Shown piece by piece: positions 52,713-57,486 of a stretch of DNA of 64,000 nucleotides; the stretch's first letter is position 1, and each line of letters starts with the position of its first letter. Both the position numbers and the translations under genes were made by a program. The notes under the pieces were generated by a model, which saw nothing but the letters and a program-made list of their open reading frames with translations, searched no databases and was not told where the DNA came from. Origin of the DNA: Gilliamella sp. wkB108 (lineage in GTDB: Bacteria > Pseudomonadota > Gammaproteobacteria > Enterobacterales > Orbaceae); assembly GCF_001690195.1 (NCBI RefSeq), contig NZ_LZGM01000096.1, forward strand, positions 1 through 64,000. The letters run 5' to 3'.

Positions 52713-54257
52713 TTATTTGACTAGAAGTTGCCCCATCATACCGAGTGTTTCATGTTCAATTATATGGCAGTGATACATACGAATACCGGGTAGATTCTGT
52801 TGTAGTCTCACGGTGATTTTTTCTTTAGGTCGCAAATTAATCGTATCTTTTAACGCTTTATATTCAGGCGATTTTTTAACTCCGTTTAATTCGTGAGATA
52901 TCACCATAAATTGTGTGCCGTGTATATGAAAATTATGATCCATGTGTGAGTTGTTAAAAATTGTCCATTCTTCAACGTCATGAATTTTACTTTCTAGATC
53001 GATTCTATCCATATCATGACGCTTGCCATTTATTAAAAACAACATTCCACCGCGAGGCTCTTTCATATCCATTACTTCGGTATATTCAAGTGATTTGTAT
53101 GCAACTGGTTGTCCTAATGTTGGTAATTGGCGTAACTTTTCAGGAAAGTTGATTGAATCTGTTTTATGAAGTTCCAGTTCAGCCAGTATCATATCATGAT
53201 CTGCTGGTACATTTCCCATTTTACTTCGATCATAAGCTAATGATTGCAAAAAAGTAGAGCCTGATTTTTTTGGAATTATTACTATTTCTGCGCGTTCTGC
53301 TGGTGTAAGTAGTAATGGTTTATCTAGTAAATAAGGTTGAGCAATTAATCCACCATCAGTGGCAACTAAATAGACATCGCAGTTTGGTACTGATAAATTT
53401 AAATAACGACCAGAACAAGCATTCCATACTCTTACTCGGGTAGCCGTTTGGATATTTATTTTCGGACGGTAAGCGCCATTTATTAACACAAATTGTCCTT
53501 CACGACCATTCATCCAATCTACCATTGAATTATCGGCAATTTCACCTTTTTCAGTTAACTTTAAATCAGAGAAAAACCAATTTAATTCGGGCAACGAGGA
53601 TAGGGGATCGTGTTTACTACGCACAATAAATAATCCAGCTAATCCTTTAGCTACTTGTTCGGCTACTGTATTATGTCCGTGGGGATGATACCAATATGTA
53701 CCAGCCGTACCTTCTGGAATAGTAAACTCATAGAGACGGCTACTATTAGCAGGGATCTCATCTTGAGGATTACCATCTTGATTTGAAGGCACAAGCAAGC
53801 CATGCCAATGCACTGTAGTTGGTTGAGAAAGGCTATTTTTAACGTTGATTTTAACTTTGTCGCCCTCAAATACTTCAATAACAGGGCCGGGTATTGTATT
53901 GTTATACGCCCAAAATTCGGTGGTAATTTCGGGTGTCAAACTAATTTTGACGGGTTTTGCCTCAATCGTAGCTTCAAAAACATCTTGTTGATGACTGGTA
54001 TTTTTTAATAGGTTTAATGTTGGTAATTCATGGCCTTGTGGTAGAGCTGAAGTTGGTAACAATTTTTGCGATTTTTCGTTACCCATTTTCATGTGCATAT
54101 TATTCATATTTTCCATATCTCCTGTTTCACAATTGTTGGAATTAACATCACAAACCATGCCTGACATAGTTGAGTGATTCATTTTAGCGATAGCTTTAGT
54201 TGTTACAATGCCCCCTAATGCAGCGGTAATATTCATCAAAAAAGTTCGACGTTTCAT
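52713..54257 (-). CDS. Periplasmic multicopper oxidase, CueO-like
   Basis: 514 residues; start at 54257 with TAGGA 6 bp upstream. A twin-arginine-type signal (MKRRTFLMNITAALGG) is followed by a Met/His-rich stretch (MNHSTMSGM...MENMNNMHMKMG) likely to bind copper. All four copper motifs are present: HWHG, HPHGH, HNFHIHG and HCHIIEHETLGMM, giving the T1 and T2/T3 sites. The CueO Met-rich insert between domains 2 and 3 seems to be missing and the N-terminal Met cluster may stand in for it. Such enzymes oxidise Cu(I) or Fe(II) to protect the periplasm. A Fur-like site lies upstream, so iron is possible. Confidence 0.88.
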   Translation of the reverse strand: MKRRTFLMNITAALGGIVTTKAIAKMNHSTMSGMVCDVNSNNCETGDMENMNNMHMKMGNEKSQKLLPTSALPQGHELPTLNLLKNTSHQQDVFEATIEAKPVKISLTPEITTEFWAYNNTIPGPVIEVFEGDKVKINVKNSLSQPTTVHWHGLLVPSNQDGNPQDEIPANSSRLYEFTIPEGTAGTYWYHPHGHNTVAEQVAKGLAGLFIVRSKHDPLSSLPELNWFFSDLKLTEKGEIADNSMVDWMNGREGQFVLINGAYRPKINIQTATRVRVWNACSGRYLNLSVPNCDVYLVATDGGLIAQPYLLDKPLLLTPAERAEIVIIPKKSGSTFLQSLAYDRSKMGNVPADHDMILAELELHKTDSINFPEKLRQLPTLGQPVAYKSLEYTEVMDMKEPRGGMLFLINGKRHDMDRIDLESKIHDVEEWTIFNNSHMDHNFHIHGTQFMVISHELNGVKKSPEYKALKDTINLRPKEKITVRLQQNLPGIRMYHCHIIEHETLGMMGQLLVK

Positions 54258-54974
54258 AATATTCCTATAATCAATTATTAAGTTAAACAATAACTGTTTT
54301 AATCATGAATGATAAAACCAATAACGAAAGATAATCATTATTGTGTTATTGACTGTTCTTACTTATTTCTATTGTTTAGACTAATTAATAAAGCAATTCT
54401 AGTTGTTTTAACGCAGGAATAAATTCTATAGGTAGATACAGTTTGTGGTGAATTGCACAAAAACATTCACCTTTTTATTTGATACTCTTTGTTCTAAATC
54501 CAACACATTGATTAATTGGAACACAAATTGATACGGTAGTTGATTTAAATGAAAATAAATCGATTTTGAGACTATGAGTGCTAGTTTAAAAGCCTTTAGA
54601 TGAAGCGATGTACTAAATCGCAACTCAAAAAGCGAAGTAATTAGTTCGGATAGATGCCATATTGATAAATCATTATCAATCCGACAAATAGTTGCTCCAT
54701 TCTACTGAAAAAAAGAGAAAAATAATATATTTTTTAAACCTATTCACCGAGAAAAGTATCATTGAATGATATATTTGTTACAAATATATAAAAAATAAAG
54801 TATAAATGATTATGCTATCTTAATTATATTTAAACGAATCAATATTCTTTTGATAACTGAAATTATTTGTAATTAAGTTGTTTATAGCTAAATGTGAATT
54901 TTTTCCAATCTATCATTAACTAGATAACAGTGTAAAGTGTTACCAGAAATATATAACTTTATATTATTACCTTT
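54258..54974. other. Long AT-rich intergenic region
   Basis: About 720 bp. It holds a Fur-like site near the oxidase start (54324-54342) and a second dyad near 54661-54680 (ATTGATAA/TTATCAAT). A 65-codon frame here has a TTG start and no recognisable product. Nothing else is supported. Confidence 0.5.
54324..54342. promoter_or_regulatory. Fur-box-like site
   Basis: GATAATCATTATT (54330-54342) matches the right 13 bases of the Fur consensus at 12 positions; the left 6 match at 2, giving 14 of 19. It lies within an inverted CAATAAC/GTTATTG pair, about 70 bp before the oxidase start. Confidence 0.4.
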
Positions 54975-55490
54975 TTATTGAGTCTTATTGGCAAGTATCG
55001 GCTTAAATTCGTATTCACTTTTACCTGCTAATATTTGAAAGAGTTTATCCTCAAATATCATAACCTCTTTATCTTCGCTATCAGATGAATCAAAGTTCCA
55101 TAAATTGCAATGACCTTCAGTAAAACAGATTGCTATTTTATATCCAGAACCATCATGTTTCCTTGGATCAAAAAAAGAAGAACCTGATAAAAAAGTTGTT
55201 GGAACCAAATCAAAAAAATCATGATGTCCTTCATATTCAGCTTCTTCCCTATTATTTAAACAATAAGTTGCTTTCAGTTCTTCTTGACTACAAATCCATT
55301 CAGGATAATCAGGATATTTTATAATTGAATTAGGTGTGATTTTAAGTACTGTTGTTTCAAAAAAAGGGTCATATACCAATTTATTTAGATAAATAGTAGC
55401 TATATGTTTTCTGTCCATTATTTCAGCTTTAACAGTGAAACTAATAAAAAAAATCATTACCGCATAATAATAGAGTTTTTTACTAATCAT
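54975..55490 (-). CDS. Small secreted protein of unknown function
   Basis: 171 residues. A signal peptide (KKLYYYAVMIFFISFTVKA) is cleaved near KA-EI. The mature part is acidic and holds four cysteines (WICSQ, ATYCLNN, IAICFTEGHCNLW). I do not recognise the family. It lies 275 bp downstream of the putative immunity gene on the same strand, so it may belong to the same accessory block. Confidence 0.55.
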   Translation of the reverse strand: MISKKLYYYAVMIFFISFTVKAEIMDRKHIATIYLNKLVYDPFFETTVLKITPNSIIKYPDYPEWICSQEELKATYCLNNREEAEYEGHHDFFDLVPTTFLSGSSFFDPRKHDGSGYKIAICFTEGHCNLWNFDSSDSEDKEVMIFEDKLFQILAGKSEYEFKPILANKTQ

Positions 55491-55765
55491 TCCATTTCCC
55501 GTTAATATCCTTATCTTTAAGTGTGATGTCCAATTACTATTTAAAGCATGAATACATGTTAAATAGCAACTATCACTGATTATTCACAATACAATTAATA
55601 TATTAAAGTATTTTTCGTTTGCTACTTGAAACAATACTGATTAAGAAATATCAGTGAAATATTTATAATTATATAGAATATGCCAAAACCAGTTTTAAAT
55701 GGTTTTTGGCTTAGATTAATGTTTTAAATTGAGTTTAGTCACAAGTTAAACTTTTTGTTCAAAGC

Positions 55766-57013
55766 TTATTTTAAATACACTTCTCCACCATCATCTCGAC
55801 GAAGTAGATGCCAGATAACATCATCATAAATTTTCCCAGTTTCACTATTTCTAAATGGGGCAACTATATGACCTAATGAAAGCTCTCTATGCTCAATTTT
55901 ACCGTCGATAGAAGCGGAATAAAGACCACTATAGCGGCATAATTCTCCACTTTTTACTTGAATACGGACACGTTGTTTTTCAGTGGTTGCATCAATATTG
56001 TTGACAGATTCAGCCGGAATATCACTGGGTATTATATCATCAAATCGAGCCTGCCAGATTTTAGAGGTTCGATTATTAAAACGTATTACACCATTTATAG
56101 AGCCAAAACCTAATGAACCAATATCAGGTGCTCGTGCCGGTTTTAACAGCGCATTTACATTTACATAATGCTTTGGATAGGGTTTATGTTCGACTTTTGC
56201 CAATTCTGGTACTTCTCCTGCCCGAACAATTATACCTCCATGATAAGGATAAAACTCAATTGCTTCATCATGATTGTTGTTTTTTAATTCAGTAATACTA
56301 CCAAGTTTAGCGTTTATCAACTCATCACCTAATATCGTTAACCAGTTAATGCATTTAAAGCCTTTCCGAAAGCGTAAATCACTTTCAGTATTTGAAATAT
56401 CTAATCCGAAATACTTATGTGCTATTTCATATTCCAAATGTTGATAACCATAGAATTCATGGCTATGCTGCACGCCTAAACCAAAAAATCCATGCATTGG
56501 TTGTAAGAGTTGACTCATCTCTTTAATCAGTTCAATCATCTTCTTACACCCTAGCGTTGCCAGCTCACTTATTGGTAAATAAAACTGTAAATAACTTATA
56601 CCTCTGTGTACTTCTTCATGCCAATCAGCAAATGACATCGTTTTTATCATATAAGCAGGAGTAAAATCTAAATTATTAACATTACTCCAATAAAAATTTA
56701 AAGAATCATAACCATTTGAGATAATTTCATTTTGTTTTTCAACAATATTCATTTTTTCATATGGAATTATCTGATTAGGATCTCCATCTGAAAATCCGTA
56801 ATGTAATTTATTTCCCCAATATTTATCATATAACGCTAATACTTTTCCAAGCGCTTGACGTTTTTCCGGTAGGTAGGCTTGATTTAGATAAAAACAGCCA
56901 ACCAAGCCTGTTTTCAAGGCAAATTGATTATCTTTATCTAAATAGTGTAAATAAGTAAATTCGTTATAATTTTCCTCATATTCATCTAAAAGCTGCTGTA
57001 GTTTTTCGTTCAT
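55766..57013 (-). CDS. Putative type VI immunity protein (DUF3396)
   Basis: 415 residues, no signal peptide or membrane segment. The N-terminal ~280 residues look like DUF3396, the type VI immunity family: GLVGCFYLNQAYLPEKRQALGKVLALYDKYWG, the YLQFYLPISEL strand, PMHGFFGLGVQHSHE and CINWLTILGDELI. The last ~75 residues (VKSGELCRYSGLYSASIDG, LGHIVAPFRN, VIWHLLRRDDGG) look like a separate small domain. I see no effector, PAAR, VgrG or Rhs gene next to it, so it seems to be an orphan. Family from memory, moderately sure. Confidence 0.65.
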   Translation of the reverse strand: MNEKLQQLLDEYEENYNEFTYLHYLDKDNQFALKTGLVGCFYLNQAYLPEKRQALGKVLALYDKYWGNKLHYGFSDGDPNQIIPYEKMNIVEKQNEIISNGYDSLNFYWSNVNNLDFTPAYMIKTMSFADWHEEVHRGISYLQFYLPISELATLGCKKMIELIKEMSQLLQPMHGFFGLGVQHSHEFYGYQHLEYEIAHKYFGLDISNTESDLRFRKGFKCINWLTILGDELINAKLGSITELKNNNHDEAIEFYPYHGGIIVRAGEVPELAKVEHKPYPKHYVNVNALLKPARAPDIGSLGFGSINGVIRFNNRTSKIWQARFDDIIPSDIPAESVNNIDATTEKQRVRIQVKSGELCRYSGLYSASIDGKIEHRELSLGHIVAPFRNSETGKIYDDVIWHLLRRDDGGEVYLK

Positions 57014-57486
57014 AATTTACCCTTTATTAATTACCGTACACGGTTAATAACGATGTTATGTTTTTTATTTGGTTGGCTCATCACTAAACTTAATATTGCC
57101 AATTATTGAAGATATACTATTAACAACTTTATCCATTGAGGCCATAAATAGTTCCTTACTTCCAAATTATTATTGATTTTATGTAAGTATTGAAGAAAAT
57201 TTCATTAAATAGTGTATGTAAAATAATTGTTTTTTAATCATGTTGCAATATTTTAAAAATTTTTATTTTACCTTTTAAAGGTGAATAAACAAAAATTTTA
57301 AGGAGGTTTTTTTATATGTTATATAAGCTTAAATAAGTAAGAATAGTGAACAATTATAAAAAGCTGTAAATTTGACTTGATAACAAGTTAAGGTGATTTT
57401 TTATTTTATCTACTTAAAATAGTTAAGATAATTATCAATGCTTCTGGTATGATATTTACATAATTAAATTTGCGAATAATAACGAT
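57014..57486. other. Intergenic region before the glycosyltransferase
   Basis: 473 bp, AT-rich. It has a palindrome ACCTTT-T-AAAGGT (57270-57282) and a consensus AAGGAGG (57300-57306) followed 9 bp later by an ATG opening a six-codon frame (MLYKLK). No other feature is supported. Confidence 0.5.

What the first reader, a model, noticed from the sequence alone, without database searches (positions are those of the whole stretch)
54975..57013. Orphan two-domain immunity gene beside a small secreted protein
The 415-residue protein joins a DUF3396-type immunity region to a distinct C-terminal domain, with no toxin next to it. Orphan immunity genes protect against toxins of rivals. The neighbour is a secreted 171-residue protein with four cysteines that I cannot assign. 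Gut symbionts with type VI systems often collect such genes.
Basis: partly seen in the sequence, partly recalled or inferred. Interest (0 to 1): 0.5.

Follow-up and report, generated by a model that had tools for sequence, protein, structure and literature searches.

The report
Orphan two-gene toxin-immunity islet in Gilliamella
A bee-gut bacterium carries, in an otherwise ordinary spot of its chromosome, two genes that very likely act as antidotes to two different toxins that close relatives inject with type VI secretion systems, one antidote for the cytoplasm and one for the periplasm; such antidote collections are known, but the second antidote belongs to no family in the catalogues we searched.

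Summary
Both genes exist exactly as described. The 415-residue protein is a TsiV (formerly DUF3396) immunity protein plus a C-terminal domain of about 70 residues. Its genome has a type VI secretion system (T6SS), but no VRR-Nuc toxin was found in it. The toxin partner exists elsewhere: in four congeners the homologue lies directly behind vgrG and a VRR-Nuc-like effector. Named congeners are Gilliamella. The secreted four-cysteine neighbour can be assigned too: relatives lie among metzincin-like zinc-protease effectors behind vgrG and a DUF4123 gene, so it is most likely a periplasmic immunity protein. The pair forms a roughly 3-kb islet between two genes that are neighbours in 23 of 29 congeners examined; no toxin remnant was found in it. 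In three congeners orphan TsiV genes are under purifying selection (dN/dS 0.08-0.11) while the adjacent vgrG remnant is relaxed (0.45-0.50). The C-terminal domain is not unique: related domains end other TsiV proteins and unrelated immunity proteins such as PoNi; its function is unknown. Against a simple story: one congener has four protease effectors and no relative of the 171-residue gene, and protection was not tested.

The parts
55766..57013 (-). 415-aa TsiV-family immunity protein, orphan
   Evidence: ORF; Pfam TsiV E 3.7e-41; PA0821 (7drg) by sequence E 2.2e-13, by fold Foldseek E 5.5e-7 and VIA Z 8.3; no VRR-Nuc effector found in own genome
56042..56839 (-). TsiV (DUF3396) region, residues 59-324
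   Evidence: Pfam range, converted to bases
55769..55981 (-). C-terminal domain, residues ~345-415; G, G and W invariant in a mixed alignment
   Evidence: Absent from the short TsiV forms of three congeners; pLDDT 79-89; related domains in other immunity proteins
54975..55490 (-). 171-aa protein with signal-peptide-like start and four cysteines; probable periplasmic immunity protein of a metzincin-like T6SS effector family, orphan here
   Evidence: Relatives in 7 of 60 genomes, own included, in arrays with HExxHxxxxxH effectors, vgrG and DUF4123 genes
54431..57377 (.). inserted islet (approximate limits) between the conserved flanks of the multicopper-oxidase-like gene and the glycosyltransferase-like gene
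   Evidence: blastn of 54291-57486 against 29 congener regions aligns at about 54305-54430 and 57378-57486; one further row (L113, 54751-54848, 71.6%) joins the A+T-rich interior to the other flank and is taken as chance
57027..57050 (.). near-perfect 24-bp palindrome 13 bp before the start codon of the TsiV gene; possible operator
   Evidence: 1 match in the window with up to 3 mismatches, 0.03 expected; its core is found only in 3 of 155 loci, all copies of this place

Best explanation
The two genes are a small islet of orphan T6SS immunity genes in a Gilliamella. The 415-aa protein stays in the cytoplasm and would bind VRR-Nuc DNases injected by other Gilliamella, most likely covering their DNA-binding site as TsiV3 does for TseV3. 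The 171-aa protein is exported to the periplasm, held by disulphides, and would bind and inhibit injected metzincin-like zinc proteases delivered with VgrG. The cell keeps both antidotes without an intact matching toxin. Shown here: gene identity, failure to find the matching VRR-Nuc toxin in the genome, both toxin families next to homologues in congeners, insertion in a site that is empty in the congeners examined, and purifying selection on orphan TsiV genes of three congeners. Inferred: binding, compartment, protection, and the role of the C-terminal domain, which I take to be an accessory module (stability or contact surface).
For: TsiV match. Homologues right behind vgrG + VRR-Nuc-like effector in G008, G010, G012, G027; all 4 genomes with that effector have the TsiV gene, 4 have TsiV alone, 27 neither (Fisher p 0.0013 over 35 genus genomes, not corrected for kinship). 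Own genome: no such effector found, but a T6SS with TssK, Hcp, sheath and ClpV-like ATPase and several VgrG. 171-aa family and protease effector: both in 5 genus genomes (effector broken in 2 of them), family alone in 2, effector alone in 1, neither in 27 (p 0.0004, same caveat); 10 of 10 full-length effector frames carry HExxHxxxxxH and N-x-M-D-Y. The own genome holds two further paralogues: C29 with a broken effector upstream, C66 with only a ~22-residue remnant of the effector's C-terminus upstream. Neither islet gene at this site in the 29 congeners examined. Orphan short TsiV genes of G002, G007, G012: dN/dS 0.08-0.11 against 0.45-0.50 for the adjacent 75-aa vgrG-derived frame (Fisher p 7e-6 to 2e-4 on rounded counts, three pairs that are not independent).
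Against: No protection, binding or localisation was tested. G029 has four protease effectors (three in tandem, almost no space between) and no 171-family match, and in G012 the first of four effectors has no family member directly behind it. Selection was measured on congeners' orphans, not on the window gene, where synonymous sites are near saturation. In print, TsiV proteins neutralise only their cognate effector (PMC9635880, passages), so at 61-66% identity cross-protection is uncertain. The Gilliamella VRR-Nuc-like effectors match Pfam VRR_NUC weakly: E 0.003, 0.0024 and 4.6e-5, one of three over the cut-off. The effector-to-metzincin link rests on motifs, a Pfam match over the cut-off in 1 of 4 scanned effectors and weak profile matches (E 0.014-0.65). 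The own assembly is in 129 contigs; of the 4 genomes with TsiV alone, G015's copy lies at a contig start, so its effector may only be unassembled.
Confidence: 0.77

Rival explanations
1. The genes are remnants: former toxin-immunity cassettes that lost their toxins and now decay without function.
For: Own genome has a broken protease effector with a paralogue (C29) and a paralogue with a mere effector remnant (C66); some Snodgrassella orphan immunity genes carry nonsense mutations (PMC5727410, passages).
Against: Both window frames are intact; no effector or vgrG remnant was found in the islet, so it does not look like a cassette decayed in place; orphan TsiV genes in three congeners are under purifying selection.
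Confidence: 0.12
2. The 171-aa family is not immunity but another accessory of the effector operons (chaperone, or a second secreted factor).
For: G029 carries the effectors without it; the first effector of the G012 array has none directly behind it; no structure or family match.
Against: In the arrays of G012, G018, G005 and G015 family members lie directly behind effectors, as single or double-domain forms, and copies persist without any effector in G025 (a broken one in G032), as expected of immunity genes; signal-peptide-like start and cysteines fit a periplasmic inhibitor.
Confidence: 0.2
3. The 415-aa gene belongs to an anti-phage defence system (PADLOC candidate PDC-M20B).
For: PADLOC match E 5.6e-18. 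The G012 VRR-Nuc-like effector weakly matches another PADLOC candidate, PDC-M09B (E 4.9e-4).
Against: The same M20B models match the TsiV protein of an Edwardsiella plasmid, which lies beside its VRR-NUC gene, so the match probably reflects the TsiV fold; the 171-aa protein and the neighbours at 52713 and 57487 matched no PADLOC model.
Confidence: 0.04

Closest known systems
TseV/TsiV pairs of Salmonella bongori (PMC9635880, passages read)
   Same: DUF3396/TsiV protein next to a VRR-Nuc T6SS effector and VgrG in congeners; DNase target; paired immunity genes also seen there
   Different: Here the immunity gene is orphan and carries an extra C-terminal domain; TsiV3 is given as 37.4 kDa, and PA0821 (7drg, 362 residues) matches the window protein over residues 38-333 only
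VgrG2b-PA0261, periplasmic metallopeptidase and its immunity protein (PMC6899460, passages read)
   Same: HExxH T6SS effector; exported immunity protein with conserved cysteines
   Different: The Gilliamella effector is a separate ~500-aa protein with HExxHxxxxxH and MDY motifs; homology of the 171-aa protein with PA0261 was not tested
Orphan immunity sets: Salmonella Typhi islet SAIDI-1 (PMC7400221, passages) and Gilliamella orphan Rhs immunity genes (PMC8125069, passages)
   Same: Immunity genes without their toxins
   Different: Those reported for Gilliamella concern Rhs toxins; here VRR-Nuc and protease effectors
PoNi (DUF1911) immunity proteins (PMC6688995, passages) with a related C-terminal domain
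   Same: A related C-terminal domain in 4 PoNi proteins; PDB 9vy2 and 9waq may contain it
   Different: Unrelated N-terminal immunity part

Membership tests
TsiV immunity family (PF11876) | Pfam TsiV domain above curated cut-off | tested here: met
   141.7 bits against 25
TsiV immunity family (PF11876) | Fold of a solved member (PA0821) | tested here: met
   Foldseek E 5.5e-7; VIA Z 8.3, 201 residues, rmsd 6.4; the model is of low confidence outside the C-terminal domain
TsiV immunity family (PF11876) | Homologues encoded behind a VRR-Nuc effector | tested here: met
   4 of 8 genus genomes with the gene; Edwardsiella, Xenorhabdus and Serratia plasmids as annotated; not at the window gene itself
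TsiV immunity family (PF11876) | Neutralises a VRR-Nuc effector | not testable with these tools
   needs an assay
Orphan T6SS immunity gene | No cognate effector in the genome | tested here: met
   VRR-Nuc-like effector not found; for the 171-aa gene no intact protease effector, only a broken one and a remnant elsewhere; assembly in 129 contigs, 99.99% complete by estimate
Orphan T6SS immunity gene | Kept by selection | tested here: inconclusive
   Met for orphan TsiV of three congeners; window gene: dS near saturation
Periplasmic metallopeptidase immunity (PA0261-like by function) | Gene next to a metallopeptidase T6SS effector | tested here: met
   For homologues in G005, G012, G015, G018 and a broken case in the own genome; G029 has effectors only, G025 family members only
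Periplasmic metallopeptidase immunity (PA0261-like by function) | Signal peptide and export | tested here: inconclusive
   Read by eye from the N-terminus; no predictor or assay
Periplasmic metallopeptidase immunity (PA0261-like by function) | Sequence homology to PA0261 | not tested
   PA0261 was not compared
Metzincin peptidases (the effector family) | HExxHxxGxxH and Met-turn (recalled definition) | tested here: inconclusive
   10 of 10 full-length frames have HExxHxxxxxH and N-x-M-D-Y, but glycine stands at the eighth place in only 1 of them; Reprolysin_5 over cut-off in 1 of 4
PDC-M20 phage-defence candidate | Partner component beside it | tested here: inconclusive
   Neighbours at 52713 and 57487 and the 171-aa protein matched no PADLOC model; the definition of PDC-M20 was not read

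The most novel reading that the evidence does not exclude
The C-terminal domain is a portable module shared by unrelated T6SS immunity proteins (TsiV, PoNi and others), with a common job such as recognising a part shared by injected effectors; it could widen what one antidote blocks, so orphan islets would be broad rather than one-toxin defences.
Probability: 0.15. Interest if true: 0.65.

Novelty: new member of a known kind. Interest (0 to 1): 0.43.

Why it matters
It points to two toxin families that probably act between Gilliamella strains in bee guts besides Rhs toxins, proposes a function for an unclassified secreted protein family and for its protease effector, and shows, in congeners, orphan antidotes kept by selection while the neighbouring weapon gene decays. 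The C-terminal domain shared by unrelated antidotes is an open, testable question.

Tried and rejected
A single-sequence model of the 171-aa protein failed (mean pLDDT 34.5) and was not searched. A first scan of named genomes with the single TsiV protein found nothing; the alignment found four Gilliamella records. Plasmid searches with the protease effector and the 171-aa protein found nothing. Promoter-like sites in the islet are no more than chance (22 against a mean of 21.8) and terminator-like sites little more (2 against 1.2). No effector or vgrG remnant was found in the islet, nor between the ClpV-like and PAAR-like genes of the own T6SS cluster, where the G027 cluster holds the vgrG-effector-TsiV cassette (PAAR and the G027 ClpV named by eye). 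I considered whether the C-terminal domain is the conserved motif of RdnI immunity proteins (PMC12483513, passages) and rejected it: that motif is described as helical. The fold look at the C-terminal domain gave only low Z rows (2.2-2.6), which says nothing. The VgrG-like look of the frame with the G543 effector match was not confirmed by Pfam. On the protease family in print I ran two searches: 'metzincin' with 'type VI secretion' and 'VgrG' gave 0 papers; a search with 'metalloprotease effector', 'HExxH' and 'immunity protein' listed 13, of which I read passages of one, PMC6899460. I make no claim beyond that.

Rows dropped or not examined: one search listed 4 of 274 genomes (own included), of which two (E 0.003, 0.006) are treated as chance. 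One search gave 18 places in 10 of 149 genomes; 14 loci were read and 10 proteins scanned. Of 33 other congeners with the glycosyltransferase-like gene, 4 had no locus and were not examined for the insertion site. In one search one chance-like row (L113) was set aside. Papers other than PMC9635880, PMC8125069, PMC5727410, PMC6899460, PMC7400221, PMC6688995 and PMC12483513 were seen as listings only; of these seven I saw passages.

Full report
What is there. Two genes lie on the minus strand: 55766-57013 (415 aa) and, 275 bases further on in the direction of transcription, 54975-55490 (171 aa). On either side are an oxidase of the multicopper type and a glycosyltransferase-like gene (names by eye). 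Named records among the relatives that carry the gene are Gilliamella sp. Choc4-2, G. bombi, Gilliamella sp. Pra-s52 and a Gilliamella MAG, so the window is from that genus, known from bee guts.

The 415-aa protein. Pfam TsiV (PF11876, 'Type VI immunity for VRR-NUC') covers residues 59-324 at E 3.7e-41. The only PDB sequence match is PA0821, 7drg (E 2.2e-13), also the best fold match, followed by TsiT/Imm52 chains at Z 4.5-4.9 mixed with rows of other proteins at the same level. The model, built with five sequences, is poor (mean pLDDT 51) except for the C-terminal domain (79-89 over residues 351-410).

Its toxin partner. Of 60 relatives searched (own included), 8 have a homologue, all among the 35 genomes of the genus. 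In G008, G010, G012 and G027 it starts 34-42 bases behind a frame of 525-572 aa that itself follows vgrG (vgrG confirmed by Pfam in the two of four scanned). Three of the four effector frames were scanned: Pfam VRR_NUC E 0.003, 0.0024 and 4.6e-5, one over the cut-off. A search with the G012 effector finds exactly these 4 of 60 genomes and not the own genome; Pfam VRR_NUC also finds nothing there. G012 has three tandem TsiV copies. G015's copies begin at a contig end, so whether it has the effector is open. Plasmid records of Edwardsiella, Xenorhabdus and Serratia annotate a VRR-NUC gene next to the TsiV gene. The published TsiV3 likely covers the DNA-binding site of TseV3, and the tested effectors were neutralised only by their own TsiV (PMC9635880, passages).

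Orphan state and selection. G002, G007 and G012 (second locus) have a short TsiV form (339-345 aa) without the C-terminal domain and without an effector beside it, preceded by a 75-aa frame that matches the start of VgrG (38-47% identity). Between these genomes TsiV has dN/dS 0.08-0.11 and the vgrG-derived frame 0.45-0.50 (Nei-Gojobori; Fisher p 7.1e-6, 1.8e-4, 6.7e-5 on rounded counts). The three pairs are not independent. For the window gene the ratio to nine relatives is 0.13-0.21 but dS is 1.5-2.1, so it says little.

The islet. The glycosyltransferase-like gene is found in 34 of 35 genus genomes. Of the 29 other congeners with a locus, 23 have the oxidase gene 693-1211 bases from it (3196 in the window), 3 have secA with the small orf there, 1 has another frame, 2 show none of these; none of the 29 has a match to either islet gene in the 1500 bases examined. 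Window and congeners align only near the outer edges of the interval, to about 54430 and from about 57378, apart from one chance-like row. The 171-aa gene is A+T-richer (28.7% G+C) than the window (34.4%), the TsiV gene is not (33.5%).

The 171-aa protein. It has no family match and none in the PDB, alone or as a profile. Relatives occur in 7 of 60 genomes, own included, all in the genus. In G012 the order is vgrG, DUF4123 gene, a 277-aa gene, then four ~490-aa frames with five one- or two-domain relatives of the 171-aa protein behind the second, third and fourth; the first frame has none directly behind it. G018, G005 and G015 have parts of the same arrangement, two of them at contig ends. 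The ~490-aa frames carry HExxHxxxxxH and N-x-M-D-Y in 10 of 10 full-length cases, four of them from G029; Pfam Reprolysin_5 is over its cut-off in 1 of 4 scanned; a profile of the ten gives ADAMTS-5, mirolysin, myroilysin and ADAMTS-1 as all 11 PDB rows, at E 0.014-0.65 (that these are metzincins is recalled). The reading is a VgrG-borne zinc protease with the 171-aa family as its antidote. Outside the genus 2 of 368 class genomes matched the effector profile, G298 strongly (E 1.3e-95) and G543 weakly (5.7e-5). Against the reading: G029 has effectors in tandem and no relative of the 171-aa protein.

The own genome's arsenal. It has TssK, Hcp, sheath protein and a ClpV-like ATPase on C85 and six vgrG frames of 804-965 aa, one of 294 aa and a 79-aa fragment. 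On C29 a broken protease effector lies before a 171-family paralogue; on C66 only a ~22-residue remnant of the effector's end lies before another. So this genome has carried the protease family before.

The C-terminal domain. tblastn with the whole protein reaches TsiV proteins of Edwardsiella, Burkholderia vietnamiensis and Acinetobacter plasmids to query residues 402-414, at 23-25% identity. The domain alone finds, weakly (E 0.007-0.009), Rahnella proteins of a T6SS locus; the one scanned that ends in the domain has no TsiV match. A profile without PoNi members finds it at the end of a PoNi protein in G223 (E 9.2e-8), one of 2 convincing genomes (own included) of 274. With G223 added, 10 of 149 genomes of G223's family match; of 11 such proteins scanned PoNi_C is in 4, no family in 5, Sel1 repeats in 1, a sub-threshold Imm72 match outside the domain in 1. 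Two disjoint profiles, window-type and PoNi-type, match with probability 86% over 40 columns, which is moderate. Two solved DUF1911 proteins (9vy2, 9waq) show similar C-termini. What the domain does is unknown.

What is known. Orphan immunity genes are established: Gilliamella other than G. apicola tend to have many for Rhs toxins (PMC8125069, passages), some Snodgrassella orphans have nonsense mutations (PMC5727410, passages), and Salmonella Typhi has an islet of them (PMC7400221, passages). A periplasmic metallopeptidase effector with an exported antidote that depends on the Dsb system is established in Pseudomonas (PMC6899460, passages). So the kind is known; the 171-aa family is not in the libraries searched.

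Noticed in passing
window 57027-57050: A 24-bp near-perfect palindrome just before the TsiV start codon, expected 0.03 times in the window; its core occurs in no fetched locus other than copies of this place, so the orphan may have its own regulation.
   Followed up: partly
L148:6008-10747 and L149:7559-9154 (G029): Four metzincin-like effector frames with no 171-family match in the genome; three stand in tandem 16-26 bases apart. How this strain protects itself is open.
   Followed up: partly
L052:291-917 (own genome C29): A 171-family paralogue with a long run of alternating Q and T behind its signal-like start, next to a broken effector.
   Followed up: no
L153:1-2347 (G543): A long frame ends in an HExxH...NIMDY protease part and is followed by a lipoprotein-like frame, perhaps another effector and antidote; Pfam did not identify the long frame.
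   Followed up: partly
L127 and L131 (G477): Frames with two neighbouring matches to the C-terminal domain near their ends; the one scanned (L127) also has Sel1 repeats.
   Followed up: no
window 55766-57013 and L056:1542-2762, against PADLOC PDC-M20B: A phage-defence candidate model that matches TsiV immunity proteins, so some of its calls may be T6SS immunity genes.
   Followed up: partly
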